Shown here: piece by piece, positions 38,707 to 56,353 of the stretch | Numbering within the stretch: position 1 is the stretch's first letter | How the letters are laid out: each line of letters starts with the position of its first letter | Assembly (NCBI RefSeq): GCF_002847345.1 | Contig: NZ_LXFV01000013.1 | Span: 1 to 64,000 of the forward strand | Direction: 5' to 3' | DNA: 64,000 bases | From: Pectobacterium peruviense | Lineage (GTDB): Bacteria; Pseudomonadota; Gammaproteobacteria; Enterobacterales; Enterobacteriaceae | The notes under the pieces: generated by a model | Databases searched by the model: none | Told to the model about the DNA's origin: nothing | What the model saw: the letters and a program-made list of their open reading frames with translations, nothing else | Position numbers and translations under genes: made by a program

Positions 38707-39504
<798 letters not shown>

Positions 39505-40745: not shown

Positions 40746-40748
40746 CAC

Positions 40749-41633
40749 TTATCTCCGGGTCTTGCCGTCTGAACTGGCAATGGTACCGTACATTTCCGGG
40801 CGACGGTCGCGGAACAGGCCCCATGAGGCGCGCTGAGCAGCAATCGCTTCTAAATCAAATTCATGCACCAGAATAGCTTCGTCCGTCTTATTGGCCTGAG
40901 CCAACAGCGCACCGGTTTGATCGGCAATGAATGAAGAACCGTAGAACGTCATTTCCAGACCGTCGATGTATTTACTGGCTTCTGTACCGATGCGGTTGGA
41001 GGCAATCACTGGCACCAGATTCGCCGCGGCATGTCCTTGCTGAACGCGGGTCCAGTGCGGCTGGCTGTCGATGTCCGGGTAGGCCGGTTCGGAACCAATG
41101 GCAGTCGGATAGAAAATCAGCTCTGCGCCCTGCAATGCCAGGCTGCGTGCGGTTTCAGGGAACCACTGATCCCAACAAATGCCCACGCCGATTTTCGCGT
41201 AGCGCGTCTGCCAGACTTTAAAGCCCGTGTCGCCAGGAATGAAGAACTGCTTTTCCTGATACGCCGGACCGTTCGGAATGTGGGTTTTGCGGTAAACGTC
41301 CAACACAGAACCATCCGCATCAATCATCACCAGCGAGTTGTAATAGGCGTTATTGGCACGCTCAAAGAAGCTCAGCGGCAGCACCACGTTTAGCTCCGCC
41401 GCCAGTGCAGAGAAATGCTTAATCAGCGGGCTGGTTTCCAGCTCCTGCGCCAGCGCATAGTGCTCCGGGCTTTGATCGATGCAGAAATACGGTGCGGCAA
41501 ACAGTTCCTGAATCAGGATAACCTGCGCGCCTTTTGCATGCGCTTGTCGCACCAGTTTTTCAGCGTTTTCGATATTCTTGGGCAGATCCCAGGAACACGC
41601 CATTTGTGTTGCGGCAACGGTAACTTTTTTCAT
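40749..41633 (-). CDS. aguB: N-carbamoylputrescine amidase
   Basis: Nitrilase-superfamily enzyme releasing putrescine, CO2 and ammonia. 294 residues; the Glu-Lys-Cys triad is visible in IQELFAAPYF (about 43), YRKTHIPNG (about 119) and GVGICWDQWFPE (about 155). First gene of aguBA. An ERIC element lies about 120 bp upstream of the start. Confidence 0.96.
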   Translation of the reverse strand: MKKVTVAATQMACSWDLPKNIENAEKLVRQAHAKGAQVILIQELFAAPYFCIDQSPEHYALAQELETSPLIKHFSALAAELNVVLPLSFFERANNAYYNSLVMIDADGSVLDVYRKTHIPNGPAYQEKQFFIPGDTGFKVWQTRYAKIGVGICWDQWFPETARSLALQGAELIFYPTAIGSEPAYPDIDSQPHWTRVQQGHAAANLVPVIASNRIGTEASKYIDGLEMTFYGSSFIADQTGALLAQANKTDEAILVHEFDLEAIAAQRASWGLFRDRRPEMYGTIASSDGKTRR

Positions 41634-42235: not shown

Positions 42236-42994
42236 TCAGGCTTCAACGGTATCCGCCTGATGCAGCGCGTGACTGACCGCTTGGCGTTGCTCCAACAAGG
42301 CGGTGCTGGTTCGGTCGCGCGGATAAGCCAAATTGACTGGTAGAATTGCACTAATCCGACCGGGACGGGGTGACATGACGACCACTCTGTCCGCCAGAAA
42401 CACGGCTTCTTCCACATCATGCGTCACCAGCAAGATCGTCAAATCCGTTTGTCGACGAATCTCCGCCAGACGTTCCTGTAACTGCTGTTTGGTCAGCGCA
42501 TCAAGCGCGCCAAAAGGCTCATCCAGCAAGAGAATGCGCGGCGTCGACACCAGCCCACGGGCGATCGCTACACGCTGTGCCATCCCACCAGACAGCTGAT
42601 GCGGCCATGCGTCGGCAAAGTCTTCCAGCCCCATCATCTGGAGATAATGTGCAATTTGCTGCGCAATTTCGGCAGAAGAAAGATTGAGATTAAGCATACC
42701 GAGGCGAATATTGCCCGTTACGGTGAGCCACGGAAACAAACGCGGCTCCTGAAACACCAGGCTAACCTCGTCGGGAATGCCGTTCACAGGCCGATCGCCA
42801 ATCAGAATACGGCCTCGTCCAGTGGTATCAATCCCAGCCGCCAAACGCAGCAGCGTCGATTTACCACAGCCGCTGGCACCAATGACCGCAACCAGCTCGC
42901 CAGCATGCAGCGACAGGTCGATGTCCTGTAACACCGTCAGCGGGACACCGTTGACGGTAAAATGTTTGGTAATGTGCTGAAAATGCAGGGACAT
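42236..42994 (-). CDS. NitT/TauT-type ABC ATPase (SsuB/AtsC-like)
   Basis: 252 residues: Walker A GASGCGKST, Q-loop VFQEPRLFPWLTV, signature LSGGMAQRVAIARGL, Walker B ILLLDEPFGALD, H-loop THDVEEA. The FGALDALTK block is typical of ATPases for nitrate, taurine, sulfonate or sulfate-ester import. The ATG at MSLHFQH follows AACGGAGGAACG and is preferred over an upstream ATG that overlaps the permease stop. Last gene of the minus-strand arm of the TonB-linked island. Confidence 0.88.
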   Translation of the reverse strand: MSLHFQHITKHFTVNGVPLTVLQDIDLSLHAGELVAVIGASGCGKSTLLRLAAGIDTTGRGRILIGDRPVNGIPDEVSLVFQEPRLFPWLTVTGNIRLGMLNLNLSSAEIAQQIAHYLQMMGLEDFADAWPHQLSGGMAQRVAIARGLVSTPRILLLDEPFGALDALTKQQLQERLAEIRRQTDLTILLVTHDVEEAVFLADRVVVMSPRPGRISAILPVNLAYPRDRTSTALLEQRQAVSHALHQADTVEA

Positions 42995-43011
42995 CGTTCC
43001 TCCGTTAGCCA

Positions 43012-44622
43012 TCATGCAAAGCGCCAGCGGGTCAGCCGCCGTTCAGACAAGGTAATCAACCGGGAAAATAGTGCAGCCACCACCGCAATCAGCACCACAC
43101 CGGCCATGATGCGATCGGATTCAAGCAGTTGTTGCGCACGAATCATCATGCCGCCCAATCCTTCTCCCGACGGCATGAAATACTCGGCGCCAATCGCCCC
43201 CGTCCACGCATGCATCAACGCGAGTCGCAGGCCGGAAAACATCGGCGGTAACACGCTGGGTAGTATCAGCGTGCGGAGCGTCTGTACTGGTGTCAGACGC
43301 AGAACCTGCGCCACTTCCAACAACGCAGGTGGTAGCTGGGCGATTCCCTGACGGGTCGCCAGCATGACGGGAAAGAATGCCGCCACAGCGATAAATACGA
43401 TTTTGGCGCTCTCGCCTAAACCGAACCAGGCCGTGATCAGCGGTAGCCAGGCAAATAGCGCCACGCAGCGCAAGGCGGACAACGCCGGATTAAACAGCCT
43501 GTCGGCGATGCGCCAGCCGCCGAGCAACGCACCGACCAGCACACCGATTGCGCTTCCCAGCATAAAGCCCTGTAGTGCGCGCAGCAGGCTGGCATTGAGA
43601 TCGGACAACAGCCCTCCCTGAATCAACCCAGACCACAGCGCGTCAACCACGCTACTCGGCGCGGGAAGAAAAGCCACGTTCACCCACTCTCTCGTACTGC
43701 TTACCTGCCACAAGGCAAGCAATATCAATGGCGCTAACCAAGGCGTCAACGACAGACTCGGCAGTGCATAACTCAGGCTATCGCGCCCCAGCACCGGTGC
43801 TGGCCAGTGAATCCAGCGACGCTCCAGCTTCAGTAGCACACGTTCCCCGGCAAACCCCAATATTCCGATGATCAGAATGCAGACGAATACAAAATCCAAC
43901 ATGAACAGTTGGCGGCTTTGTACCAACAGATAGCCCAGCCCTTCGCTGGATGCCAACAGCTCAACCGCAATCAAGGCGACCCATCCGGTAGAAAACGCCA
44001 GCCGAACGCCCGTCATCACATAAGGCAACATCGCAGGCAGAATCAGATAACGCAGGAAGGCAACCGGTGATAAACGCAGGCTGCGCGCCATTTCGTGCAA
44101 TTTTTGTGGCGTCTGTTGAATACCGGCGCACGTGTAAAGCGTCACCGGCACCGTGACCGATTTCACCAGCACCACCAATTTCAGCGCTTCCCCGATCCCC
44201 AGTGACAGCATCAAAAGCGGGATCCAGGCTAACGTCGGGATCTGCGCGATGACGGTAAATAGCGGCATAAACAGCGCATTCAACCGTCGATTCAGACCGA
44301 ATAAACTGCCCAAAACCAGACCCAGCACGATACCGCCGCTGAAACCAATCACCAGCCGCATCAAGCTGATGGGTAACTGGTGAATCAGCTCTTCAGGAAT
44401 AAAATCCCTTGCACTATCCACCACCGCCAGCGGCGAAGGCAGGATCTGTTCAGACATCCACCCATGCCAACTCGCAAGCCACCAGCTAGCAAGTACCAGC
44501 AGCGGCACGACGAGCGATACGATCAGTGGAATGGCTAGCGCAGAATGTCCCGCCGACAGCGCAACGGCGCTCAGAGAGGTATCAGGAGCGGAACGTATCC
44601 GCAGCGGAGATTTAGGCATCAT
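43012..44622 (-). CDS. Fused double ABC permease (AtsB-like)
   Basis: 536 residues made of two homologous TauC/SsuC-type permease domains in one chain. The first half carries LPSPLAVVDSARDF and the EAA-loop KLHEMARSLRLSPVAFLRYL (about 185-204); the second repeats the plan with LPAPSSVVDALWSG and LLEVAQVLRLTPVQTLRTLI (about 437-456). A normal SsuC is about 260 residues and works as a homodimer, so this fusion provides the whole channel. AtsB of the pseudomonad sulfate-ester importer has the same two-domain plan. Two adjacent ATGs are possible starts. Confidence 0.88.
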   Translation of the reverse strand: MMPKSPLRIRSAPDTSLSAVALSAGHSALAIPLIVSLVVPLLVLASWWLASWHGWMSEQILPSPLAVVDSARDFIPEELIHQLPISLMRLVIGFSGGIVLGLVLGSLFGLNRRLNALFMPLFTVIAQIPTLAWIPLLMLSLGIGEALKLVVLVKSVTVPVTLYTCAGIQQTPQKLHEMARSLRLSPVAFLRYLILPAMLPYVMTGVRLAFSTGWVALIAVELLASSEGLGYLLVQSRQLFMLDFVFVCILIIGILGFAGERVLLKLERRWIHWPAPVLGRDSLSYALPSLSLTPWLAPLILLALWQVSSTREWVNVAFLPAPSSVVDALWSGLIQGGLLSDLNASLLRALQGFMLGSAIGVLVGALLGGWRIADRLFNPALSALRCVALFAWLPLITAWFGLGESAKIVFIAVAAFFPVMLATRQGIAQLPPALLEVAQVLRLTPVQTLRTLILPSVLPPMFSGLRLALMHAWTGAIGAEYFMPSGEGLGGMMIRAQQLLESDRIMAGVVLIAVVAALFSRLITLSERRLTRWRFA

Positions 44623-44642
44623 GATCGTCGGTATCCGCAGCG

Positions 44643-45044
44643 TTATTTTTGCGTCAGCAGGGAGAGACGGGTAATCCCCGCCTGCTCGACATCGGCCAGC
44701 AGCGCGGCGACATCACCGTAATTCGCTTCTTTATCCGCCTGCACCTGCACCACCAAATCTGCATTACCCGCTTTCGCCTGCTGCAAGCGCGGCACCAGTT
44801 GTTCCCGCGCTAGGTTTTCTTTATTGATGAAGAGGCGCTGCTCACCATCAATGCTAATAACAATCGGATCGGTGCGATCGACCGGAGACACCGCCGCCGT
44901 TTTTGGTAGCTGAATAGGAATGGCATTGGTCAGCATCGGCGCGGTCACGATAAACACCACCAGCAATACCAGCATGACATCCACGAGCGGCGTGATATTC
45001 ATTTCACTCATCACGTCGTCGTCATTACGCGAGGTAAACGCCAT
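44643..45044 (-). CDS. exbD: ExbD-family energy transducer
   Basis: 133 residues: short cytoplasmic tail, one membrane helix (PLVDVMLVLLVVFIVTAPML, about 19-38) with the conserved protonatable Asp at its start, and a periplasmic domain. Works with ExbB to power TonB using the proton gradient. 1-bp gap after exbB. Because it is in the operon with the ABC genes, it probably serves the island's own receptor. Confidence 0.92.
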   Translation of the reverse strand: MAFTSRNDDDVMSEMNITPLVDVMLVLLVVFIVTAPMLTNAIPIQLPKTAAVSPVDRTDPIVISIDGEQRLFINKENLAREQLVPRLQQAKAGNADLVVQVQADKEANYGDVAALLADVEQAGITRLSLLTQK

Positions 45045-45045
45045 C

Positions 45046-45762
45046 TCAGACCACCTCTCTCAGGTTCTTCACGGAGAAAGAGGCAGACGATGGCTCCACA
45101 CTGGTCTGGAGTGCGCTGACATGAAAATCGTGCGCCTGCATCACGCTGTATACATCATGAGCGAAGTCATCCATATCCGCGACGGCCAGCTTGAGACGAC
45201 GCAAAAAGTAGTTGTAGATCAGCACCGCAGGAACCGCGACAGCGATCCCGACGCCGGTGGCTATCAGCGCATTACCAATCGGCCCTGCGACAGTGTCGAG
45301 GCTGGCAGAACCAGAAAGCCCGATTTCCTGCAACGCCGCCATAATGCCCCACACGGTGCCAAACAGGCCGATAAACGGCGACGTACTGCCAATGCTGGCC
45401 AACACCGCCAGCCCACTTTCCAGCGAACGACGTTCGCGTTGAATCTGCTGTTGCAGCGCGCGCTCAACCCTATCGGGCAGATGAATATTCAGAGCAAGCT
45501 GCCCGCTAATCCGCTTCGGCGCTTTGACCGCAGCCAGTGCCAGATTGGCGAGTGAACTGGGCTGCTTTGCGCTGGTTTCTGGCGTCTGGCTGACGTCATC
45601 CTGCTGCCAGAAAGCCTCGCGAAAGCGTCGATCGCGCCGCTGCGCACGTCCATATTGGACGAACTTCAGTAGCCCCAGCCCCCAGGTGACGAGAGAAAAC
45701 AGCAACAGCAACAGGATCACCGCACCTTCCGCAGAAAAGAGTTCAATGTGTCCAAGCGTCAT
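45046..45762 (-). CDS. exbB: ExbB/TolQ-family proton channel subunit
   Basis: 238 residues with three membrane segments (about 13-35, 120-145 and 160-185). The MotA/TolQ/ExbB core is ASIGSTSPFIGLFGTVWGIM and GPIGNALIATGVGIAVAVPA. The ATG at MTLGHIEL was chosen over a TTG two codons upstream. Lies between tonB and exbD. Confidence 0.92.
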   Translation of the reverse strand: MTLGHIELFSAEGAVILLLLLFSLVTWGLGLLKFVQYGRAQRRDRRFREAFWQQDDVSQTPETSAKQPSSLANLALAAVKAPKRISGQLALNIHLPDRVERALQQQIQRERRSLESGLAVLASIGSTSPFIGLFGTVWGIMAALQEIGLSGSASLDTVAGPIGNALIATGVGIAVAVPAVLIYNYFLRRLKLAVADMDDFAHDVYSVMQAHDFHVSALQTSVEPSSASFSVKNLREVV

Positions 45763-45772
45763 AACCAATACC

Positions 45773-46648
45773 TCATGAGTTCAGCGAAAAATCGACAGGA
45801 ACAACGACCCAGCCGCTAACCGGCTGACTGCCGCGACGCGCCGGAACAAAAGACCAGCGCAGCACCGTATCTCTGGCGGCCTCATCAAGTGACGGATAGC
45901 CGCTGGATTGATGAATACGAATGGTTTGCACCTTACCGTCGGCACGTACCTGCACGTTCAACAGCACGGTGCCTTCATAACCACGGCTAATCGCTACGTC
46001 GGGATAAGACGGTGCGGGATTATGCAGGTAGTCGGCATTGGCGAGCGGCGGTGTCAACGGTGCGTCAACGGGCTGCGCGACTGCATTTTGCGCCACAGGA
46101 GCGGGGGTTATCGGTGCCGTTGCAGATGCAGTTTCTTTCTGGGGTTGCGCGGTTGGTTTAGGCGCGGGAGTGCTCTTTTTCACCGGCGTCTTTTTCGGTA
46201 CAGGTTCAGGTTTTTTCTCCGGCACTTTTTTCTCCGGCACTTTTTTTTCAGGAACAGGGGGCAGCAATGCATTTTCATCCACCTGCGGCTCAGTTATCGT
46301 TGGTTCTTCCACCGGCTGTGGCGTCGGCACTTCAGGTTCTGCAATCGGAACAACCTCTTGCTGCACAGGCTCTGCCACCATAGAAACCAGTTCGACGCTG
46401 ACAGGCTGCGGCCGCGCAGGCACCGTCACGGGCGGCGGCGACGCGACGTTGAACAACGCCAGAACCCCAGCGTGCAATAACAGCGTCGCTCCCACCGCCA
46501 GCCAGCGCTCCGGCCGGGACGTGGGCGTCGTATTCAGATGCGGTAAGCGTTGCTGCGCCGCACTACTGACTCGGCTAGCATGCGGCGTTGGTTCCGGTGA
46601 ATAAGACCGGGGTATCGGCGCGGCTCCCGCATAGAGTAATTCCGTCAT
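45773..46648 (-). CDS. tonB: TonB energy transducer (island copy)
   Basis: 291 residues: one N-terminal membrane anchor preceded by basic residues (LLLHAGVLALFNVA, containing the His used by TonB for proton coupling), a long Pro/Glu/Lys-rich periplasmic spacer including VPEKKVPEKKVPEKK repeats, and a C-terminal TonB domain (PSYPDVAISRGYEGTVLLNV to VVVPVDF) that contacts receptors. ATG follows CAGGAGCAACC. First gene of the minus-strand arm; the chromosomal housekeeping tonB is presumably elsewhere. Confidence 0.93.
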   Translation of the reverse strand: MTELLYAGAAPIPRSYSPEPTPHASRVSSAAQQRLPHLNTTPTSRPERWLAVGATLLLHAGVLALFNVASPPPVTVPARPQPVSVELVSMVAEPVQQEVVPIAEPEVPTPQPVEEPTITEPQVDENALLPPVPEKKVPEKKVPEKKPEPVPKKTPVKKSTPAPKPTAQPQKETASATAPITPAPVAQNAVAQPVDAPLTPPLANADYLHNPAPSYPDVAISRGYEGTVLLNVQVRADGKVQTIRIHQSSGYPSLDEAARDTVLRWSFVPARRGSQPVSGWVVVPVDFSLNS

Positions 46649-47091
46649 GATGGTTGCTCCTGACAATATATCTTTATCGCTCTATTTCACGTTGCAGGTG
46701 TCAATGACGACGTCGCCTGAAATAGCATTGGGATAATCGATTCTTCCCGACTACTTAATAAAGTCAACGTATGTATCTGCATATCGATATTCATTTCATT
46801 CTTTATTTCTTTAATAAAGCGATAACGTTAATAATCGACACTCAGACTAAAGGTAAAAATTACCGACAGGCTAATGCATAGTTGGAATAGTTTTTTTTCG
46901 TTCGTTGCATACCGATGAAATAGACGATGAATACTGACTTAGCTATTTACTAAAAATAATAATGCTTTTTTTGTATTAGTCAGTTTATTGCCAAGCCTTT
47001 AAATGTGGTGCTGCACACGATATGACGCCGTTCGAAACAGGCGCAATAACACAATCCCTATTCATCGATTTCATTACTGGCGGGTAAAATA
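46649..47091. promoter_or_regulatory. Divergent control region of the TonB-linked island
   Basis: 443 bp, strongly AT-rich, between the tonB and binding-protein starts, which face away from each other. GTTGGAATAG followed by a T8 run and a second GCAT (46876-46911) recalls promoters of sulfur-starvation genes controlled by CysB/Cbl, but the match is loose. No ORF or large palindrome seen. Confidence 0.45.
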
Positions 47092-48099
47092 ATGACGACA
47101 TCAGGACGAAAATGGTTAGTAACCAGCTTATTGGCAATGGGTATGGCCTGGTCAGGCATCGCCTCAGCGATCACCGAGATTCGTATTGCCGCGCCAGACA
47201 TTGGCGCGGGTACAAAACCCAGCGGCGGTGGCTTACTCGATGTCATCCACAGTCAGAAGCTGCTGGAACGCGAGTTTAGCAAAGATGGGATCAGCGTGCG
47301 TTGGACGTTCATCAAAGGCGCGGGCCCCGTCATCAACGAAGCGTTTGGTAACCATCAGGTCGACGTGGCCTATCTGGGGGATTTAGCCAGCATTATTGGC
47401 CGTTCGCGCGGTCTGGATACCCGCGTGATCGCCGTAGCATCACGCGGTATCAATCACTATCTGGCGGTGGCGAAAGGCTCCGGCATTGAGAAAATCCCCG
47501 ATCTGAAAGGCAAACGCATCGGGCTCTTTCGTGGAACGGCGGGTGAGCTTTCCTTTGTCAGCGCGCTTGATTCGCAAGGTCTGAAACCCTCTGACGTTAA
47601 GCTGATCAATCTCGATTTCGCAGCGGCCAGCGCGGCGTTGGCTGCCGGACAGATTGATGCCACCTGGGGCGGCAGCAATACGCTTTCACTGCGGGATAAA
47701 GGGCTGGCAGACATTCCGCTATCCAGCCGCGATTTGAACGGTGCGGGTCAGCTCAGCGGCTTCCTGTTAGTCGATGAGAAATTTGCCAAAGGCAACGAGG
47801 ATATTCTTCGCCGCTTAGTCAAAGTTCAGCGAGAAGCGGCAAACTGGGCTAGCGACGACAAAAATAAAGATGAATTTATTCAACTCTTAGCTACTCAATC
47901 AGGTTACCCAGAAAATATATTACGCGTCGAATGGGATACATTGCCGCCATTAACTGAGCGTCTTTCGCCAGAATTGGATCCCGCCTTCGTAGAAAAATTA
48001 AAACGTGCCGTCACATTGGCCTATGAATCGCGCCTTATTCGACAACCTTTTGATGTTGATAAATGGCTGAATGATTCTTATCTAAAAGCAACGCAGTAA
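47092..48099 (+). CDS. NitT/TauT-type periplasmic binding protein (SsuA/AtsR-like)
   Basis: 335 residues: signal peptide with cleavage near GIASA, then an SBP fold with IRIAAPDIGAGTKPSGGGLL, WTFIKGAGPVINEAFGNHQVD (about 75-95) and LAAGQIDATWGGSN (about 183). Family members bind aliphatic sulfonates, taurine, nitrate or sulfate esters. It is the expected partner of the permease and ATPase on the opposite strand. First gene of the plus-strand arm, 85 bp before the receptor gene. Confidence 0.87.
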   Translation: MTTSGRKWLVTSLLAMGMAWSGIASAITEIRIAAPDIGAGTKPSGGGLLDVIHSQKLLEREFSKDGISVRWTFIKGAGPVINEAFGNHQVDVAYLGDLASIIGRSRGLDTRVIAVASRGINHYLAVAKGSGIEKIPDLKGKRIGLFRGTAGELSFVSALDSQGLKPSDVKLINLDFAAASAALAAGQIDATWGGSNTLSLRDKGLADIPLSSRDLNGAGQLSGFLLVDEKFAKGNEDILRRLVKVQREAANWASDDKNKDEFIQLLATQSGYPENILRVEWDTLPPLTERLSPELDPAFVEKLKRAVTLAYESRLIRQPFDVDKWLNDSYLKATQ

Positions 48100-48184
48100 C
48101 TTATTTCCCCCAAATATTATAACCCACGTATTGCCGTGATATTCACGGCAATCGGCAGCCTATTGACGACATTCGGAAGAAGCT

Positions 48185-50455
48185 ATGTATTTTAAAAAAC
48201 ACCAGCAGTATTTAAAAAAACACCAACGAAAAATAACGTCGGGCATTTTAATGAGCTGCGTCTTAACGCTTCCTGCTATAGCCCGAGCTGACGACCCGAA
48301 AATTACAACGAATAACGTTCCACCAACCGAGGCAACCACCGCCGCCCCCGTCCAGCTGAAACGCGTGAAAGTGAACGCTCAGCGTGCGACTGTTCAACCG
48401 CCGACTACACTGGCATCGGTAATTGACGGCAAAACGCTCGAAGAAGAGCGGATATACCGCTTTGAAGAGCTGTCACAGCTCGTGACAGGGCTGGATGTCG
48501 ATACCGTCGATGTGATGGATACTACCGTCACCATCCGTGGGATTGGCGACGGTGGCGAGAGCGGCACCAACATCGGTATGCCGGGCAGCGTGGGCCTGTT
48601 TGTCGATGGCGTCTACTTGTCCCGCCCCGGCGTTATCTCTAACGATTTGCTAGATATCGACAGCACCCGCGTGTTGAAAGGCCCGCAGGGCGCCGCCTAC
48701 GGCTTTAATACCACCGGCGGCGCGATTGATATTCGCACCCGCAAACCGACCTTCACACCCGAATATTCATTGGAACAATCATTCGGTCAACGCGGCTATC
48801 TGCAATCCAAACTGATGGCATCCGGGCTACTCAGCGACCACTGGGCAGGCCGCATCAACCTGTCACGTACCGAACGCGGTGGAAACGTCACGAATATCGA
48901 AAATGGCCATAAGCTCGGGGGCAGCACCAATAACGGCGTGCGCGGCCAGTTGCTGTATCAGCCGAATGACAGCTTTAGCCTCAGAATCACCGGCGACTAC
49001 AGCGATTCCACCCAACGTCCCGTTTCAGTTCTGGTGAGTGCAACCGACGCATTCCGCACCCGTGCGGAACAGACTGGCCTCAAGGTCGTCGGGGGTCGTC
49101 AGGTCGCGATGGATGACGAAAACGTGATTCGCGTGGCACAAGGCGGCGGCTCGGTAGAAGCCAACTGGAAACTGAAAAGCGGTTATAGCGTCAATTCACT
49201 GTCATCACTGCGCTATTTCCGTGTGTTACCCAGCACGGCGGATAACTGGAATATTCCGCTCTATCACGACAGCGGTGCTGACGTGCGCGATCGCGTCTGG
49301 TCGCAAAGCTTTTGGCTGGACTCACCCAAAGGCAATAAATTCGATTATTCGCTGGGCGTCGATTACTGGGGAGAGAACCTCGATACCGAGGCAAACAGTC
49401 GCTACTACAACGACAGCCGTGTCCAGACGTGGGTAGGCAGTGGCTATCGGAACATTAATGTCCAACGCGTTGGTACGTTAGATGACACCGTCTATTCCGC
49501 CTATGGCCGCGGAACCTGGCACGCTGCCGATAAGCTGGACGTCATTGTCGGCCTGCGACAGACCTACGAGAAAAAAGAGGGGACGTTTATCCGCAGAAAC
49601 CGCGCAAACTTTACCTCCGGCCCGCTCTCGCAAACCAACCGCCTGCCTTCTGGCTCCGTCAGTCTGAACTGGTTCGCCGCACCGAACGTCACCCCTTATG
49701 TCACAGTGGGCTACGGGGAAAAATCCGGCGGCCTGAACGTATCGTCCGGGGCTGCAAGGCAGTTGGGGATAGACTCACTGTACGTCGATCCAGAGAAAAC
49801 CCGTTCGGCAGAATTGGGCGTCAAGACACACTGGCTACAGCGCAAAGTAGAGTGGAATACCGCACTGTTCTGGAGTGTGGTCGAAGATTTCCAGAATAAT
49901 GCCTATGACGAGGAAACGGATACCAGCTACCTGATTAACGCCGGGAAATTCCGCTCACGCGGCGGGGAATCCCAACTGACGCTACGCCCGCTTGATGGCC
50001 TGAGTATCAGTCTCGCCGGTACTGTTCTGGATACCAACTACCTGAATTTCCCTAACGCCCGCTGCCCGGCAGAAATCTCCGCCGTCTCGTGCGATATGTC
50101 GGGAAAACGCGTCTTCAAATCTCCCACGCTGAGCTACAACACGCGCGTGCGCTATCAATGGGATACGCCAAATAACCTGCAAGCCTCAGTTTCCGGTCAA
50201 TGGTCATGGAGGAGCTGGGCCTACGGTACGCTTGATGATTCCGAGAGCAATCGCATTCCATCGTATGGCGTCCTGAATCTGTCTAGTGGCCTGAGCGGCA
50301 AGCAAGGCGACAACCGTTGGAACGTGTCGCTGTGGGTAAAAAATGCGTTGGATAAAAACTACTACCGCTCCGTCAGAGGTTCCAGCGCCACAACGGGCGT
50401 GATTGGCGAACCGCGCATGGTCGGGATCTCAGTCGGCTACGATTTCAAGGGCTGA
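48185..50455 (+). CDS. TonB-dependent outer-membrane receptor
   Basis: 756 residues: long N-terminal signal sequence (cleavage near ARADD), a short extension, a possible TonB box (VQLKRVKVNAQ, about 56-66), plug domain with VTIRGIGDGG and VLKGPQGAAYGFNTTGGAIDI (about 162-182), and a 22-strand barrel ending GISVGYDFKG. The fold resembles receptors of the FecA/SftP type; the ligand cannot be read. It lies between the binding protein and the lyase-like gene, so the ligand is probably the substrate or product of one of them. Confidence 0.9.
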   Translation: MYFKKHQQYLKKHQRKITSGILMSCVLTLPAIARADDPKITTNNVPPTEATTAAPVQLKRVKVNAQRATVQPPTTLASVIDGKTLEEERIYRFEELSQLVTGLDVDTVDVMDTTVTIRGIGDGGESGTNIGMPGSVGLFVDGVYLSRPGVISNDLLDIDSTRVLKGPQGAAYGFNTTGGAIDIRTRKPTFTPEYSLEQSFGQRGYLQSKLMASGLLSDHWAGRINLSRTERGGNVTNIENGHKLGGSTNNGVRGQLLYQPNDSFSLRITGDYSDSTQRPVSVLVSATDAFRTRAEQTGLKVVGGRQVAMDDENVIRVAQGGGSVEANWKLKSGYSVNSLSSLRYFRVLPSTADNWNIPLYHDSGADVRDRVWSQSFWLDSPKGNKFDYSLGVDYWGENLDTEANSRYYNDSRVQTWVGSGYRNINVQRVGTLDDTVYSAYGRGTWHAADKLDVIVGLRQTYEKKEGTFIRRNRANFTSGPLSQTNRLPSGSVSLNWFAAPNVTPYVTVGYGEKSGGLNVSSGAARQLGIDSLYVDPEKTRSAELGVKTHWLQRKVEWNTALFWSVVEDFQNNAYDEETDTSYLINAGKFRSRGGESQLTLRPLDGLSISLAGTVLDTNYLNFPNARCPAEISAVSCDMSGKRVFKSPTLSYNTRVRYQWDTPNNLQASVSGQWSWRSWAYGTLDDSESNRIPSYGVLNLSSGLSGKQGDNRWNVSLWVKNALDKNYYRSVRGSSATTGVIGEPRMVGISVGYDFKG

Positions 50456-50459
50456 TGTC

Positions 50460-53234
50460 ATGAACAAGATGACCTACTCACGCCGACGTTTCCTGCGCGA
50501 CAGTACGCTACTCACGCTGTCGGCACCGTTCTGGAAACCTGCGGTCGCCGCACCTCTTACAGCGGCCTCCAACCAAGCTAGCGATACCGTACCGCAGGTC
50601 AGCCTGCGCTGGCTGGACGGACAGATGCCTCACGCCTTCAGTGGCGTCACCTGGGGCGTACCCTGGCCGCAGGGGGCTGTACGCGGCGATAGCAACTTCC
50701 AGTTACACGGCACCCAGCAGCAGGTTTACGACCTGCAAAGCTGGCCGCTAGCGCGTTGGCCGGACGGTTCGATTAAATGGTCGGCACATGCTCTGGGCGG
50801 TGAGACACCGCCACAAGATACACTCGTTTTGCGGCCAACGGCCAAAGCAGGCGCGCCATCGGGTGTCGGGATGGTTAGCCAGCACGATCGCGGCTGGACA
50901 GTCGATACTGGCCATATTCGGTGCGTGATTCCACGTTCAGGCTCCCGCCTGATTGAAGAAGTCTGGCGGGATAACCGTCTGGCGTTAACCAACGGCAGGC
51001 TGGTATTGCGCATGCAGCGCGGTGCGGAGACGGGCAATACGCTGACGCAGGACACGTATCAGGGCGAGATCGAGACAGTTACGGTGGAGCAAAACGGGCC
51101 ACAGCGCACGGTGATTGCGCTACGCGGTACGCATCACACACAGCAGCAGGGGGTTACGCGCATCCCCTTTGTTATCCGGCTGTATAGCTATGCGAATACC
51201 GACTCGCTGCGCGTGGTACACACCCTGATCTATGACAACGATGACGATCGGCTCAGCCTGAAAGGGCTTGGGTTAGCGTTCGACATTCCACTAGAGGGGG
51301 AGTTGCACGATCGACACGTCCGCTTCGTCTCGGATCAAGGCGGGCTCTTTCGTGAAGCGGTACGCGGCCTGAGCGGCTTACGTCGCGATCCCGGTGCAGC
51401 CGTTATCGCGGCACAGCTGGCGGGGCAAGCCACGCCGCCGATAGCGGATTTTTCACCGGAGGTCGGCAAACGGCTGGATTACATCCCCGCGTTTGGCAGC
51501 TACCGCCTGACTCAGCACCACCCCGACGGTTTCCAGATCCACAAACGCACCACGGCTGGACAGGGTTGGCTGCTTTCCGCCACGGGCGAACGGGCGGCAG
51601 GCGTCGGCTATCTCGGCACGCCGAAAGGCGGCGTAGCGTTCGGCCTGCGCAATTTCTGGCAGAGTTACCCCGCCAGTCTGGAAATCGAAAATGCTCACAC
51701 TGACGTGGCAACCGTCACGCTGTGGCTGTGGTCGCCGTGGGCGGAACCGATGGATATGCGCTTTTATCATGACGGGCTGGGTCAGGATACCCATGACAAA
51801 CAGCGCGAAGGGCTGGCGATCACCTATGAGGACTATGAACCGGGCTTCGGCTCCGCAGTTGGCGTAGCGCGCACCAGCGAACTGTTTATCGATGTTCTGC
51901 CCGCGACGCCCGACGCGGAAAATCTGGTGAATCGAGCACGACGTATGCAGCAACCGCCGCTGCTGGTGGCAGATGCACAGGATTTGTACCGCGCACAGGC
52001 GTTTGGATCGATGTGGGCCCCCGCCTCTGCCGCAACACCTGCACGAACCAGTCTGGAGAAGCAGTTGGGAGCATATTTCGACGCCTACCAGCAGGAGATC
52101 GAGCAGCGAAAATGGTACGGCTTCTGGGATTTCGGTGACGTCATGCATACCTATGACAGCGACCGTCACGTCTGGCGCTACGATGTGGGCGGCTACGCAT
52201 GGGATAACTCAGAACTGAGTACCGATCTGTGGCTCTGGTATTACTTCCTGCACAGCGGGCGCGCCGAGGTGTTTCGTATCGCGGAAGCCATGACACGCCA
52301 CACCGGTGAGGTCGACGTGCACCATCTGGGACGTTTTAGTCCGCTGGGGTCGCGGCACAATGTCCGCCACTGGGGCGACAGCGCCAAACAGCTGCGTATT
52401 TCTACCGTCGCCAACCGCCGTTTTCTCTACTACCTCACCGCCGATGAGCGCATCGGTGAACTGATGGATGAACAAGTTGAGGCGCTGCGCACGCTAGGCA
52501 CGGTGCTACCGGGCCGCAAAATCGGCCAGACGCATCCCGATAACCCAAACCATATCAGTCTGGGTTTCGGCACCGACTGGGGTGCGGTCGCCGCCGCGTG
52601 GCTCACTGCCTGGGAACGCCACGGCGATCCCGCGATGCGCGAACGCTTGCTCAACAGTATGCAGACGCTGGCCGCCCAGCCGCACGGTTTTTTCACGGGC
52701 AGCGCCGCCATCGATCCCGATACCGGCAGATTTCTTCCCGCTCCTGCGGATCAGGTGGAAATCTCACACCTCAGCGCAGTGTTTGGTCTGACAGAAATCT
52801 GTAGCGAACTGATTGAGGTGCTGCCCGATCCCGACTTTAGACGGGCGTGGCTCGACTACTGTCGGCTGTATAACGATCCAGTCTCACTAAGCGCCGCCGT
52901 AGGTAAAACGGTGAAAAAGCTCAATCTGGCTCAAGGCCATGCCCGACTGACCGCCTTTGCCGCACGACAACTGAATGACAGTACGCTGGCGCAGCGCGCG
53001 TGGGCAGAATTTACCGCGGGCAGCGGCGGTATTGCCAACCCGACGCTCACGCAACGACGCCTGACGCCCCCTGAAGTGCTCTCCCCGATCAACGAGCCGG
53101 TGATTGACTCCACCATTGATAAACATTCCGGCAGTACCACGGCAACCAATCTGGCGACCAACGCCGTTGCCCAGTGGGGATTAACCGCCATCGCCCTACT
53201 GGCCGTGTTGGATGACATTCCTCCTTCTTCTTAA
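50460..53234 (+). CDS. Tat-exported exo-rhamnogalacturonan-lyase-family protein (PcRGLX/YetA-like)
   Basis: 924 residues. A twin-arginine signal (SRRRFLRD then a hydrophobic stretch and AVAA) predicts folded export to the periplasm. The N-terminal domain has VSLRWLDGQMPHAFSGVTWG, PWPQGAVRG and LARWPDGSIKWS (residues about 45-110), which I recognise as the PcRGLX/YetA-like beta-sandwich family; a central region and an alpha-helical C-terminal region follow. Fungal PcRGLX cleaves rhamnogalacturonan I; bacterial members are mostly untested. The ATG with AAGGG upstream was chosen; it starts 4 bp after the receptor stop. By eye it is GC-richer than neighbouring core genes. Confidence 0.8.
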   Translation: MNKMTYSRRRFLRDSTLLTLSAPFWKPAVAAPLTAASNQASDTVPQVSLRWLDGQMPHAFSGVTWGVPWPQGAVRGDSNFQLHGTQQQVYDLQSWPLARWPDGSIKWSAHALGGETPPQDTLVLRPTAKAGAPSGVGMVSQHDRGWTVDTGHIRCVIPRSGSRLIEEVWRDNRLALTNGRLVLRMQRGAETGNTLTQDTYQGEIETVTVEQNGPQRTVIALRGTHHTQQQGVTRIPFVIRLYSYANTDSLRVVHTLIYDNDDDRLSLKGLGLAFDIPLEGELHDRHVRFVSDQGGLFREAVRGLSGLRRDPGAAVIAAQLAGQATPPIADFSPEVGKRLDYIPAFGSYRLTQHHPDGFQIHKRTTAGQGWLLSATGERAAGVGYLGTPKGGVAFGLRNFWQSYPASLEIENAHTDVATVTLWLWSPWAEPMDMRFYHDGLGQDTHDKQREGLAITYEDYEPGFGSAVGVARTSELFIDVLPATPDAENLVNRARRMQQPPLLVADAQDLYRAQAFGSMWAPASAATPARTSLEKQLGAYFDAYQQEIEQRKWYGFWDFGDVMHTYDSDRHVWRYDVGGYAWDNSELSTDLWLWYYFLHSGRAEVFRIAEAMTRHTGEVDVHHLGRFSPLGSRHNVRHWGDSAKQLRISTVANRRFLYYLTADERIGELMDEQVEALRTLGTVLPGRKIGQTHPDNPNHISLGFGTDWGAVAAAWLTAWERHGDPAMRERLLNSMQTLAAQPHGFFTGSAAIDPDTGRFLPAPADQVEISHLSAVFGLTEICSELIEVLPDPDFRRAWLDYCRLYNDPVSLSAAVGKTVKKLNLAQGHARLTAFAARQLNDSTLAQRAWAEFTAGSGGIANPTLTQRRLTPPEVLSPINEPVIDSTIDKHSGSTTATNLATNAVAQWGLTAIALLAVLDDIPPSS

Positions 53235-53962
53235 TGCCGTCACCCGACAGCACGTTACAGGACATCACCATGATTGACCCTAGCTGTACTGAAAACACGC
53301 TCCTCCTCTCACCACAGGTAAACGGCACGCATGACATTATCGATTCCCCGCACCGTTCGGCGCTTATCTGGGCAACGGATTCCGCGGGTCAGCCGCTACA
53401 ATGGCAGGTGGAGCAGGAAGATCCTGACCGCACGGCGATCCAGACCACGCCAGAGCGTCTGACTCTGGAGAGCGCCGCTGGACTGACGCTTTGGCTAGAT
53501 GCCCCGCTCTCGGGCACCTATCGCATTGCCTTCACGCGGGAAATTCTGGTCGCGGATCGCCCCTATGACCGCGTGTCGGACCTGAATCAGTTCTGGGCTG
53601 CACGCGACCTGCACCACCCGAACCTGTTTACCCGGCACGGTAAGCTCAACGAATATGACAGCCTGAACTTGTACTATGTCGGCATGGGCGGCAACTGGAA
53701 CAGCACCACGCGCTTTCGTTATTACGATGGCCACGGCGAGCGCCTGCTGCTTGGCGAATACACCGATGCCACGCATCTGCTGCGTCCTAATCATCGCTAT
53801 CGCATCGTGATTGAAGTGGATCGGCGGGAAACACGTTTCTGGGTCGATGATGTGCTCTATTTCCACGCGAGCTACCCAAATACGCCTGCTCCGGGCTATT
53901 TCGGCTTTAGGACGGTATTTTCACGTCAGGAAATTAGCGAGTTCAGCATCACTCCGCTGTAA
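53234..53962 (+). CDS. DUF1961 (YesU-like) protein
   Basis: 242 residues, with a concanavalin-like beta-sandwich expected. The block VSDLNQFWAARDLHHPNLF, YYVGMGGNWNSTTRFRYYDG and EYTDATHLLRPNHRYRI (about 112-205) matches the DUF1961 family, whose best-known member is Bacillus subtilis YesU from the rhamnogalacturonan utilisation cluster. No signal peptide is visible, so it may act in the cytoplasm. The start codon overlaps the previous stop (TAATG); a second ATG at 53270 preceded by CAGGA is possible. Activity unknown. Confidence 0.8.
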   Translation: MPSPDSTLQDITMIDPSCTENTLLLSPQVNGTHDIIDSPHRSALIWATDSAGQPLQWQVEQEDPDRTAIQTTPERLTLESAAGLTLWLDAPLSGTYRIAFTREILVADRPYDRVSDLNQFWAARDLHHPNLFTRHGKLNEYDSLNLYYVGMGGNWNSTTRFRYYDGHGERLLLGEYTDATHLLRPNHRYRIVIEVDRRETRFWVDDVLYFHASYPNTPAPGYFGFRTVFSRQEISEFSITPL

Positions 53963-54878
53963 GCGACGCTGGCGCGCCGTGCAGGTCACTGTCGACCTGC
54001 ACGAAGGTGTCGATCAGCTTGCGTGCCAGCAGAGACAGACGGGCGTCTGCCAGATAAATAATGCCGTAGTGGGTATAAAATTCGTCGGTGTTGTCGTCCA
54101 GACCCGCAATCTTCAACATATGAATGCCGTGCCTATCGGGCTCATTGAAATGATTGGTCGTCCCGATAGCATCCGAATGGCGCACCACGTCCAACAGACT
54201 ATAGCCATTTTCACACTCAATACTGGTGCGAATATCCAGCTTACCGCTCAGTTGCACCAGTGCACGGTGCAGGTTGGGTGGACGAATCGTTGCTGCCAGC
54301 GGATAGGAAAAGAACTGCTCGACGGTAATCTCTTCCTGCGCCGCCAACGGATGCTCGCTACGGCAGCAAAATCCCCAGCGATGCTGGCTAAGCGGCTGAA
54401 CCCGATAGCGGGTATCGAATTCAAAGTTACGCATGTCCGCCACGATGAAATCCAGTTCTTCGGCCATGAGCCGATGGCCCAGCGCCTGCCAGTTATCAAC
54501 GCGAAAGACCATCCGCACCTTAGGGTACAGCCGAGAGAAAGCCCCGATCACCTGCGGCATCAGCCAGGCGGCGGGTGCCGGGCCGCAGCCAAAATTCACT
54601 TCGCCCGCTTCTTTCTCATTGAACTGCTGAATATCGTTAAACAGATCGTGCGTCTGATTAATCAGGCGACGTGCATGCTCCAGCACCACCAGTCCTTTCG
54701 GCGTGGGTTCCAACTGGTTCATGCGATCGATCAGGCGGGTACCAATGGTCTGCTCCAGCGACTGGATACTACGGCTGAAAGCGGATTGGGACAGCTTCAT
54801 CGCCTGTGCCGCAGACGTAAAATTGCGATGCTCAATCAGGGCAATAAAGTGGCGCAGTTGGCGAAGATCGATATTCAT
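53949..54878 (-). CDS. LysR-type transcriptional regulator
   Basis: 309 residues: winged helix at the N terminus (MNIDLRQLRHFIALIEHRNF and SQSAFSRSIQSLEQTIGTRL) and a LysR effector domain. It converges on the DUF1961 gene with a 14-bp overlap of the coding ends. The position suggests that it controls the island, as SftR controls the pseudomonad sulfate-ester receptor, but this is inference. Its ligand is not evident. Confidence 0.9.
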   Translation of the reverse strand: MNIDLRQLRHFIALIEHRNFTSAAQAMKLSQSAFSRSIQSLEQTIGTRLIDRMNQLEPTPKGLVVLEHARRLINQTHDLFNDIQQFNEKEAGEVNFGCGPAPAAWLMPQVIGAFSRLYPKVRMVFRVDNWQALGHRLMAEELDFIVADMRNFEFDTRYRVQPLSQHRWGFCCRSEHPLAAQEEITVEQFFSYPLAATIRPPNLHRALVQLSGKLDIRTSIECENGYSLLDVVRHSDAIGTTNHFNEPDRHGIHMLKIAGLDDNTDEFYTHYGIIYLADARLSLLARKLIDTFVQVDSDLHGAPASLTAE

Positions 54879-55390
54879 GGCGGCAATGGGTGTGTCATCA
54901 GAACGGAAGGAATTTGCAGGCTAGCAGGTCTGGTCGCGCAGAAAAAATAATAAAACCGCTGTTTATATGCTCACTGGTTATATATCTAAGGCGGTTGATG
55001 TAATGGGGGAAGCAACGGAGATAGCATCTCCACTTAGTGCTGTCTCTTGATCATATGTTTTATGTAACTTGGGGAATAGTTTCGTGCGCGATAATGACGT
55101 TATTTTTATGCTACCTCGTAGCACGCGCCCGACACGGGACGGCTCAAACGCCGCTCGCCCCGTGACCCCAGGCTTTCGGCGGAAATTATGCCGCTGAAGC
55201 GGTGCCTTCGTCGATACCCAGCTTTACGGACCGCTTGCGACACGCTCCCTGCGTGGCGCAAGCTTGAGCCGCGTCCATGCGGCTCATCCTAAGCTAGCTA
55301 TCTCCTCAGCATAATTTTTTACGCCGGATAACGGCAAAACCAGCAAAACTTGTGTAGCCGCCATTCAGCGAAAACATCAACTTTCCTAGA
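54879..55390. other. Intergenic region with hairpin cluster
   Basis: 512 bp between the LysR gene start and the pfkA stop. The left part (to about 55100) is AT-rich and presumably holds the LysR promoter. The centre (55109-55286) holds five adjacent palindromes, annotated separately. No gene is visible. Confidence 0.75.
55109..55286. repeat. Cluster of five hairpins downstream of pfkA
   Basis: TGCTAC/GTAGCA (55109-55123); CACGGG...CCCGTG with inner CGGC/GCCG (55133-55164); a bulged GCTT...AAGC stem (55172-55200); GCTTGCGACACGC/GCGTGGCGCAAGC (55233-55263, one mismatch); TGAGCCGC/GCGGCTCA (55265-55286). GC-rich, non-coding, in the 3' flank of pfkA. Looks like a mosaic of dispersed palindromic units. 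Confidence 0.8.
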
Positions 55391-56353
55391 TCAGAACAGC
55401 TTTTTCGCCGTCTCTAACCAGTCGCCTTTGAAAGGACGTTTCATGTTCTCGATGGCGTCAACGATGTCGTGGTGCACCATTTTTTCATTCTGGATACCGA
55501 CACAGCGACCACCGTAGCCCTGCTGTAGCAGCTCGATAGAATAAGCGCCCATGCGGGAAGCCAGAATACGGTCGTACGCGACCGGCGAACCGCCGCGCTG
55601 AATGTGGCCGAGTACGGTCGAACGGGTTTCACGCCCCGTCTCTTTCTCAATGTATTTCGCCAGCTCATCGACGTCGCACACCAGCTCGGTGATTGCCACA
55701 ATCGCGTGCTTTTTACCTTTCTCGATACCCGCTTTAATTTCGCTAACCAGATCTTCCGGGCTGAACGGCACTTCCGGCAGGACGATAAATTCACAGCCGC
55801 CAGCAATTGCCGCCGCCAGCGTCAGGTCACCACAGTGGCGTCCCATGACTTCAACAATCGAAATACGCTGGTGGGAAGAGGAGGTATCGCGCAGTCGGTC
55901 AATCGCTTCCAGCACGGTTTCCAGCGCGGTAAAGTAGCCGATGGTGTAGTCTGTACCCGCCACGTCGTTATCGATCGTGCCCGGCAAACCGATACAGGGA
56001 AAACCCATTTCCGTCAGACGTTTAGCACCCATGTAGGAACCGTCACCGCCGATAACCACCAGCGCATCCAGACCGCGTCTCTGCATGTTTTCCACGCAGA
56101 CCTGACGCACCGCTTCATCACGGAACTGTGGGAAGCGCGCGGAACCAAGGAACGTACCGCCGCGGTTAATTACATCCGATACGCTGTAGCGATCCAACTG
56201 CTCCATGCGATCTTCGTACAAGCCCTGATAGCCATCATAAATGCCGTAGATTTCCAGCCCTTCCGACAGTGCAGCACGAACCACACCTCGAATTGCCGCA
56301 TTCATACCTGGTGCATCGCCACCGCTCGTCAACACTCCGATTCTTCTAATCAT
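55391..56353 (-). CDS. pfkA: 6-phosphofructokinase I
   Basis: Commits fructose 6-phosphate to glycolysis. 320 residues as in E. coli: ATP site [13 protein letters not shown] (about 12), GGDGSYMGA (about 102), catalytic [11 protein letters not shown] (about 126, with the general-base Asp), and the IQRGGSP region. A Cra-type palindrome lies about 120 bp upstream, consistent with Cra repression known in E. coli. Confidence 0.98.

What the first reader, a model, noticed from the sequence alone, without database searches (positions are those of the whole stretch)
42236..54878. Self-powered TonB-plus-ABC uptake island linked to pectin-type enzymes
Seen: a private tonB-exbB-exbD set runs into a fused double permease and an ATPase on one strand. 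Divergently there are the matching binding protein, a TonB-dependent receptor, a Tat-exported PcRGLX/YetA-like protein and a DUF1961 protein, with a LysR regulator closing the unit. Known: AtsRBC (double-permease AtsB) plus receptor SftP and regulator SftR import sulfate esters in pseudomonads, while PcRGLX and YesU relatives belong to rhamnogalacturonan degradation. Inference: one system captures a plant-derived ligand at the outer membrane, cleaves it in the periplasm and imports a small product, possibly a sulfur-bearing or charged one that standard sugar porters would not take. The block replaces cdh-sbp of E. coli between tpiA and pfkA. I know of no described system with this exact set.
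Basis: partly seen in the sequence, partly recalled or inferred. Interest (0 to 1): 0.82.

Follow-up and report, generated by a model that had tools for sequence, protein, structure and literature searches.

The report
Sulfate-ester-type importer carrying a pectin lyase
In soft-rot bacteria, a nutrient-uptake machine whose relatives travel with sulfate-ester-cutting enzymes instead carries an enzyme of the kind that cuts the pectin called rhamnogalacturonan, so what it feeds on is an open and testable question.

Summary
The gene set is real and at the stated place, in a Pectobacterium genome. One correction: the last protein of the + arm is DUF6250, not DUF1961. The lyase is a full-length PL26/PcRGLX homologue keeping the tyrosine that was mutated in a solved structure.

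Comparison shows two modules of different origin. Module 1, the uptake chassis: binding protein, fused double permease, ATPase, TonB receptor, private TonB-ExbB-ExbD, LysR. In one gammaproteobacterium of another family (G150/L069) all of it except the LysR sits with a sulfatase, a TauD-family dioxygenase and an arylsulfotransferase, without lyase or DUF6250. The island receptor groups with that receptor, not with five receptors of lyase-bearing loci. Module 2, PcRGLX plus DUF6250, occurs as a pair elsewhere, in three cases beside pectin genes.

The island is present or absent as a unit in Pectobacterium (same 21 of 25 genomes). An open-frame copy lies elsewhere in another genus.

Best reading: an ats/sft-type sulfate-ester importer whose enzymes were exchanged for a rhamnogalacturonan lyase pair. 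The ligand, an acidic pectin disaccharide or a sulfur-bearing compound, is unresolved.

The parts
42236..43015 (-). ABC importer ATPase (AtsC/SsuB-like)
   Evidence: PF00005; 59% identical to the ATPase of the genome's second ats-like cassette, 57% to that of G150
43012..44622 (-). fused double permease (AtsB-like)
   Evidence: two BPD_transp_1 stretches; 51% to G150, 48% to the own-genome paralogue
44643..45044 (-). ExbD
   Evidence: PF02472; 58% to Azotobacter plasmid ExbD, 57% to G150
45046..45768 (-). ExbB
   Evidence: PF01618; 62% to Azotobacter, 55% to G150
45773..46666 (-). TonB (likely start a few codons inside the TTG ORF, at MTELLYAG)
   Evidence: PF03544; C-terminal part 57% to Azotobacter and G150 TonB
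46667..47091 (.). divergent promoter region, A+T-rich, with blocks conserved in 8 aligned Pectobacterium sequences; a TTAG-N7-CTAA dyad in the window copy and most others (LysR-site reading is inference)
   Evidence: alignment; G+C 0.355
47092..48099 (+). periplasmic binding protein (AtsR/SsuA-type)
   Evidence: PF09084, and TIGR01728 below its cut-off; 49% to the binding protein of G150, 44% to the own-genome paralogue; tree
48185..50455 (+). TonB-dependent receptor (SftP-like)
   Evidence: PF00593, PF07715; 38% to G150 receptor, E 3e-165
50460..53234 (+). Tat-exported PL26/PcRGLX rhamnogalacturonan exo-lyase homologue
   Evidence: PF19501, PF21345, PF21346; PDB 5xq3 E 3.9e-225; start and Tat motif
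53234..53962 (+). DUF6250 protein without signal peptide
   Evidence: PF19763 E 3.8e-61; N-terminus compared with six relatives
53949..54878 (-). LysR regulator (SftR-type)
   Evidence: PF00126, PF03466; 41% to the LysR of the own-genome ats-like cassette
54940..54958 (-). PhoP operator, exact match to the one printed for P. versatile sftR
   Evidence: 0 mismatches; 0.02 matches expected by chance at up to 3 mismatches; operator from PMC7843439 Table 4

Best explanation
The island is an ats/sft-type (sulfate-ester family) uptake chassis whose usual enzymes have been replaced by a rhamnogalacturonan-I lyase pair. SHOWN by sequence: gene order, families, kinship of both modules, and common presence/absence. 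INFERRED: the receptor, driven by its own TonB-ExbB-ExbD, brings an acidic plant-wall oligosaccharide into the periplasm. The Tat-exported PL26 lyase trims it by beta-elimination. DUF6250 assists the lyase, perhaps carried through Tat by it. The AtsR-like binding protein passes a small anionic product to the AtsB-AtsC-like ABC importer. The SftR-like LysR senses a product and switches on the divergent operons; PhoP raises the regulator. Most likely cargo: an unsaturated galacturonosyl-rhamnose disaccharide, its carboxylate sitting where relatives bind a sulfate. The genome has two GH88/105 enzymes that could process it.
For: Chassis minus LysR with sulfatase, TauD and ASST in G150/L069; published ats/sft cluster; own-genome paralogous cassette with an arylsulfotransferase. 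Island receptor E 3e-165 to G150; its best match to five receptors in PcRGLX-bearing loci is E 0.002; receptor tree support 1.000. PcRGLX-DUF6250 pairs beside PL11 lyase, GH35, GH43, oligogalacturonate lyase, pectinesterase and Pel9A-like. Tyr mutated in 5xqo kept in 9 of 9 lyases examined. Lyase and island permease in the same 21 of 25 Pectobacterium genomes. Ten-gene copy in another genus, island at 4.77 Mb and pfkA at 2.67 Mb of one contig. Island-less site in G387, 284 bases between pfkA and the agu genes. Lyase gene 4 bases after the receptor, one-base overlap with DUF6250. Two GH88/105 in the genome.
Against: The binding protein keeps many motifs of sulfate-ester-associated relatives (GAGP, GDL, RGTA..LSF, NLDF), which fits an unchanged sulfur ligand as well. 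No KdgR-like box in the island promoter. PcRGLX is not always in pectin loci nor always paired: the G722 surroundings scanned show no pectin family, and short loci of G722, G596 and G701 show no DUF6250. G150 is a single example. Pectobacterium is thought to have other importers for this disaccharide (RhiT, recalled). NMT1-type binding proteins usually take smaller ligands than a disaccharide (recalled). No structure of adequate confidence was obtained. DUF6250 lacks a signal peptide here, so its place beside the periplasmic lyase is uncertain.
Confidence: 0.45

Rival explanations
1. Sulfur scavenging kept: the chassis still imports a sulfate ester or other organosulfur compound from plants, and the lyase pair strips a uronic-acid/rhamnose part from a sulfated glycoside or glycan, or loosens the wall, so that the sulfur compound can pass.
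For: Seven chassis relatives had readable neighbours and each has an enzyme of a kind used on organosulfur compounds: sulfatase, TauD and ASST in G150; ASST in the own cassette L040; NtaA/DmoA-family monooxygenases in Azotobacter and Acinetobacter; TauD and/or LLM oxidoreductase in three more plasmids. These enzyme families also have other substrates, and the Azotobacter stretch has no permease match. Binding-protein motifs conserved. The island LysR is named SftR in print, if the operator match is taken as identity.
Against: No sulfatase, sulfotransferase or monooxygenase in the island. Three of four sulfatase-family hits of the genome lack the C/S-x-P/A-x-R signature; the fourth has S-N-A-A-R but looks like the membrane protein YejM (recalled). 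A sulfated RG-I in crop plants is not established knowledge (recalled).
Confidence: 0.3
2. Two neighbours, two jobs: the lyase pair was inserted into the receptor operon of a sulfate-ester importer and is only co-expressed with it; lyase products leave by other importers such as RhiT.
For: The two modules occur apart outside this lineage.
Against: Lyase genes lie inside the operon between receptor and LysR, 4 bases after the receptor. Both arms are kept together in another genus and are absent together in 4 of 25 Pectobacterium genomes.
Confidence: 0.2
3. Ordinary iron or siderophore uptake island with a passenger enzyme.
For: The receptor hits the TonB-siderophore family model below its cut-off; its best PDB match is the pesticin receptor.
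Against: The binding protein and permease are SsuA/AtsB-type, not siderophore-type; the receptor's relatives sit in organosulfur-type loci.
Confidence: 0.05

Closest known systems
Pseudomonas ats/sft sulfate-ester cluster (atsACBR-sftR-atsK-sftP; PMC3596284, passages)
   Same: Binding protein, permease, ATPase, LysR regulator and TonB-dependent receptor of the same general kinds.
   Different: Has arylsulfatase and alkylsulfatase and, as listed there, no private TonB-ExbB-ExbD; the island has PcRGLX and DUF6250 instead. Direct sequence comparison with the Pseudomonas proteins was not made.
G150/L069 locus of an unnamed gammaproteobacterium
   Same: Receptor, TonB, ExbB, ExbD, fused permease, ATPase and binding protein, 38-57% identical, all on one strand.
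   Different: Carries sulfatase, TauD-family dioxygenase and arylsulfotransferase; no match to lyase, DUF6250 or the island LysR in the stretch read.
Loci with PcRGLX-DUF6250 pairs (Novosphingobium L028, Sphingomonas L027, Hymenobacter L026, G666 L047)
   Same: Same enzyme pair, adjacent.
   Different: The four receptors compared from L027 and L028 do not resemble the island's; other glycan enzymes or MFS transporters stand near some of them; no SsuA-type importer or TonB set was seen in the annotated or scanned genes.
PcRGLX of Penicillium chrysogenum (PL26; PDB 5xq3, 5xqg, 5xqj, 5xqo; organism and family number recalled)
   Same: Homology over 868 residues, E 3.9e-225; the tyrosine changed to phenylalanine in 5xqo is conserved.
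   Different: Here bacterial, Tat-exported, coupled to an uptake system.
Second ats-like cassette of the same genome (L040)
   Same: LysR, binding protein, double permease and ATPase, 41-59% identical.
   Different: No match to the TonB trio or lyase in the stretch; an arylsulfotransferase-thioredoxin fusion follows.

Membership tests
ats/sft sulfate-ester uptake system | SsuA/AtsR-type binding protein, AtsB double permease and AtsC ATPase | tested here: met
ats/sft sulfate-ester uptake system | SftP-type receptor and SftR-type LysR | tested here: met
   Receptor related to the receptor of the sulfatase-bearing G150 locus; LysR 41% to that of the own ats-like cassette; PhoP operator match to the printed sftR. 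Not compared with the Pseudomonas proteins themselves.
ats/sft sulfate-ester uptake system | Linked sulfatase (AtsA) or alkylsulfatase (AtsK) | tested here: not met
   None among the ten island proteins; of four sulfatase-family hits in the genome three lack the C/S-x-P/A-x-R signature and the fourth, matching it as S-N-A-A-R, looks like YejM (recalled). Hence filed as a variant, not a member.
ats/sft sulfate-ester uptake system | Induction by sulfate limitation; binding of sulfate esters | not testable with these tools
   needs expression and binding experiments
PL26 exo-rhamnogalacturonan lyase | Three-domain PcRGLX architecture | tested here: met
   PF19501, PF21345, PF21346 all over cut-off
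PL26 exo-rhamnogalacturonan lyase | Tyrosine mutated in 5xqo conserved (catalytic role inferred) | tested here: met
   9 of 9 lyases examined
PL26 exo-rhamnogalacturonan lyase | Lyase activity on RG-I | not testable with these tools
   needs purified enzyme
DUF1961 (YesU) | PF09224 match | tested here: not met
   No match in the genome; the protein is PF19763/DUF6250
Pectin (KdgR) regulon | KdgR box in the promoter | tested here: not met
   Five 3-mismatch sites in the window against 2.6 expected by chance, none in the divergent promoter; consensus recalled

The most novel reading that the evidence does not exclude
A self-powered sulfate-ester uptake machine was converted into an importer for an acidic pectin sugar by exchanging its enzymes (sulfatases out, PL26 lyase plus DUF6250 in). 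The receptor, TonB trio and ABC importer would then be a reusable chassis whose cargo is set by the enzyme pair, with a carboxylate replacing the sulfate in the binding pocket and the signal-less DUF6250 riding through Tat on the lyase.
Probability: 0.35. Interest if true: 0.78.

Novelty: new variant of a known kind. Interest (0 to 1): 0.58.

Why it matters
It joins two fields that do not usually meet: sulfur scavenging and pectin breakdown by soft-rot bacteria. If the sugar reading is right, an importer family known for sulfur compounds would gain a carbohydrate member and a clear case of enzyme exchange on a fixed transport chassis. If the sulfur reading is right, a pectin-type lyase would be part of sulfur supply on plants. 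Genes that look like this island have been listed in print as sulfate-ester genes and predicted host-interaction factors of Dickeya and Pectobacterium (PMC4079955) without mention, in the passages seen, of a lyase. A binding assay on one small soluble protein would separate the readings.

Tried and rejected
Rejected: DUF1961 identity. KdgR control. Siderophore uptake as the main job (last rival). Receptor from a rhamnogalacturonan locus: blastp to five receptors in PcRGLX-bearing loci gave E 0.002, 0.49, 1.6, 4.6 and no match; distant relatives of the receptor (about 30%) do exist on the same Novosphingobium and Sphingobium plasmids but far from the lyase. A genome sulfatase as partner: none convincing. 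A second case of PcRGLX with an SsuABC-type importer: Niveispirillum L033 has a binding protein, permease and ATPase about 4 kb from its lyase, but the binding protein matches NMT1_2 and follows a nitrate-sensing chemoreceptor, so probably a nitrate importer and no support.

Led nowhere: AlphaFold models of DUF6250 and the binding protein had mean pLDDT 46 and 44 from nine near-identical sequences each, so no pocket analysis was possible; the DUF6250 model is all-beta at low confidence. Two fold-search requests did not complete. Class-wide DUF6250 search: 3 of 369 genomes, only the own genome over the cut-off. Class-wide double-permease search at E 1e-70: 2 of 369, own genome included, with at most three candidates scored per genome in the rows shown, so a lower bound; G150 is a single example. 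Phylum-wide PcRGLX: 7 of 398, two of them Pectobacterium and one (G739) weak and partial. Of the five others, G666 has DUF6250 beside the lyase; the short loci of G722, G596 and G701 show none. The ten G722 proteins scanned, the lyase included, show no other pectin family. Surroundings of G596, G701 and G739 were fetched but not scanned for families. Hymenobacter has a pectinesterase about 9 kb from the pair but otherwise unrelated neighbours. Literature (listings unless said otherwise): DUF6250 gave 0 papers; YetA/rhamnogalacturonan/PcRGLX gave 2 irrelevant ones. The statement that I found no description of the combined island rests in an open-access library only. Dickeya: I did not look at a named Dickeya genome; its copy rests on PMC4079955 alone.
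Full report
What is there. The window lies in a Pectobacterium genome (relatives). Between tpiA (38737-39504) and pfkA (55391-56353) lie two agu-like genes and then the island. One arm on the minus strand: TonB, ExbB, ExbD, a fused double permease and an ATPase. A divergent arm on the plus strand: an SsuA/AtsR-type binding protein, a TonB-dependent receptor, a PcRGLX protein and a DUF6250 protein. A convergent LysR gene closes it. The lyase most likely starts at ATG 50460, four bases after the receptor stop, and overlaps the DUF6250 gene by one base, so both look like part of the binding-protein/receptor operon.

The lyase. All three PcRGLX domains are present. The solved PcRGLX aligns over 868 residues at E 3.9e-225; the residue that differs in entry 5xqo, a tyrosine turned into phenylalanine, is a tyrosine here and in 9 of 9 lyases examined. 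The protein has a twin-arginine motif. DUF6250 relatives of six other organisms have a hydrophobic N-terminus (peak 1.8 to 2.9); the island protein does not (0.43), nor, by eye, does the G846 copy. That it rides through Tat with the lyase is a guess.

The enzyme pair elsewhere. Of 10 plasmid records with a PcRGLX match, four also have an adjacent DUF6250 match: Hymenobacter, Sphingomonas, Sphingobium (by coordinates; locus not opened) and Novosphingobium, the last with two pairs. G666 has the pair too. Of the other six records I opened two: Pseudoalteromonas has DUF1961 beside the lyase; Niveispirillum has no DUF6250 match. The Novosphingobium locus holds a PL11 rhamnogalacturonan lyase, GH35, GH43, a GDSL esterase and three receptors. 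Sphingomonas has an oligogalacturonate lyase; G666 has a pectinesterase and a Pel9A-like protein. Against a universal link: the ten G722 proteins scanned, the lyase included, show no other pectin family, and the short loci of G722, G596 and G701 show no DUF6250. DUF6250 also stands beside or near chondroitinase-family lyases in a Bacteroides and a Vibrio plasmid, so it may be a general lyase companion.

The chassis elsewhere. In G150, a gammaproteobacterium of another family, one strand carries receptor (38%), arylsulfotransferase, TauD-family dioxygenase, TonB, ExbB, ExbD (55-57%), double permease (50-51%), ATPase (57%), a sulfatase with a CSPTR signature and a binding protein (49%), with no match to PcRGLX, DUF6250 or the island LysR in the stretch. 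An Azotobacter plasmid has receptor, NtaA/DmoA-family monooxygenase, aldo/keto reductase, SsuA-type protein (27%) and a TonB-ExbB-ExbD trio 57-62% identical, but no permease match. An Acinetobacter plasmid has permease, ATPase, binding protein, receptor and the same two enzyme kinds. Three further plasmids have TauD and/or LLM oxidoreductases beside the ABC genes; a Variovorax receptor locus (L060) carries no annotation and was not read further. The Pseudomonas UW4 cluster is described as atsACBR-sftR-atsK-sftP (PMC3596284, passages). The genome's own paralogous cassette ends in an arylsulfotransferase-thioredoxin protein. Small trees place the island and G846 next to G150 for permease (0.915) and binding protein (0.821), and with G150 and Variovorax for the receptor (1.000); the ATPase tree is unresolved (0.329).

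One unit in its lineage. PcRGLX and the island permease (at least 88% identity) are in the same 21 of 25 Pectobacterium genomes; G370, G380, G387 and G390 lack both. In G387 only 284 bases separate pfkA from the agu genes, and that stretch with its edges matches the window on both sides of the island; G370 has a 3.3 kb gap without island matches; in G380 and G390 no agu or island match was found near pfkA in the stretches read. Among 149 genomes of the family, one per genus, only the own genome and G846 have lyase and receptor at the cut-offs used. The G846 island has all ten genes, nine at 64-81% identity and TonB at 48%, as open frames, with island at 4.77 Mb and pfkA at 2.67 Mb of one contig. 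Whether the four Pectobacterium genomes lost the island or never had it is not settled.

Regulation. PMC7843439 (passages) reports a LysR gene called sftR, activated 2.34-fold by PhoP in cells grown in minimal medium with polypectate, with a 19-base operator. That exact sequence occurs once in the window, 62-80 bases upstream of the island LysR, and not in the paralogous cassette. So the printed SftR is most likely the island LysR; I did not compare proteins. The authors saw their only potential SftR operator in an atsR-atsBCA intergenic region. No KdgR-like box is in the island promoter.

Prior sight. PMC4079955 (passages) lists, among predicted host-interaction factors, Dickeya dadantii 3937 genes numbered between ABF-0019115 and 0019125 (hypotheticals, sftP, atsR, ExbB, ExbD, astB) and P. 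carotovorum counterparts. The numbering fits this island, but I saw no sequences.

Interpretation. Two modules of different ancestry were joined and kept together. Either the importer changed its cargo to an acidic pectin disaccharide, or it still takes an organosulfur compound and the lyase helps to reach it. For the first: operon structure, joint presence and absence, two GH88/105 enzymes in the genome, no convincing sulfatase. For the second: conserved binding-protein motifs, the enzyme neighbours of the seven chassis relatives that could be read, and absence of a KdgR box. I hold the first at 0.45 and the second at 0.3. Structure prediction did not help.

Noticed in passing
L040 7726-14296 (G000 contig 4): A second ats-like cassette in the same genome: LysR, binding protein, double permease, ATPase and an arylsulfotransferase fused to a thioredoxin domain; no signal peptide obvious by eye on the last.
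   Followed up: partly
L005 and L075 (G388); L008: Decaying island copies: permease and lyase broken in one Pectobacterium, many frame breaks in a Symbiopectobacterium copy.
   Followed up: partly
L003 and L006, divergent promoter region (alignment A2): Inserts of over 100 bases, ERIC-like in look (recalled), at different points of the divergent promoter in two species.
   Followed up: no
window 46667-47091: Long blocks conserved in 8 aligned sequences, including a TTAG-N7-CTAA dyad in most, a candidate LysR site.
   Followed up: no
L030, L031: DUF6250 beside (Bacteroides) or about 10 kb from (Vibrio) chondroitinase-family polysaccharide lyases, with a sulfatase next to it in Vibrio: perhaps a general companion of lyases that make unsaturated uronides. 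YesU, of DUF1961, binds fucosylated glycans (PMC6120924, abstract).
   Followed up: partly
L056, L055: Plasmid-borne receptor plus NtaA/DmoA-family monooxygenase plus aldo/keto reductase plus SsuA-type binding protein, in Azotobacter with a private TonB trio: a related, possibly self-powered organosulfur locus.
   Followed up: partly
L033 18225-23617: Niveispirillum PcRGLX lies near a nitrate-sensing chemoreceptor and an NMT1_2-type binding protein, permease and ATPase; probably chance neighbourhood.
   Followed up: partly
window 39642-41633: Genes resembling agmatine deiminase and N-carbamoylputrescine amidase between tpiA and the island (names recalled, no family scan).
   Followed up: no
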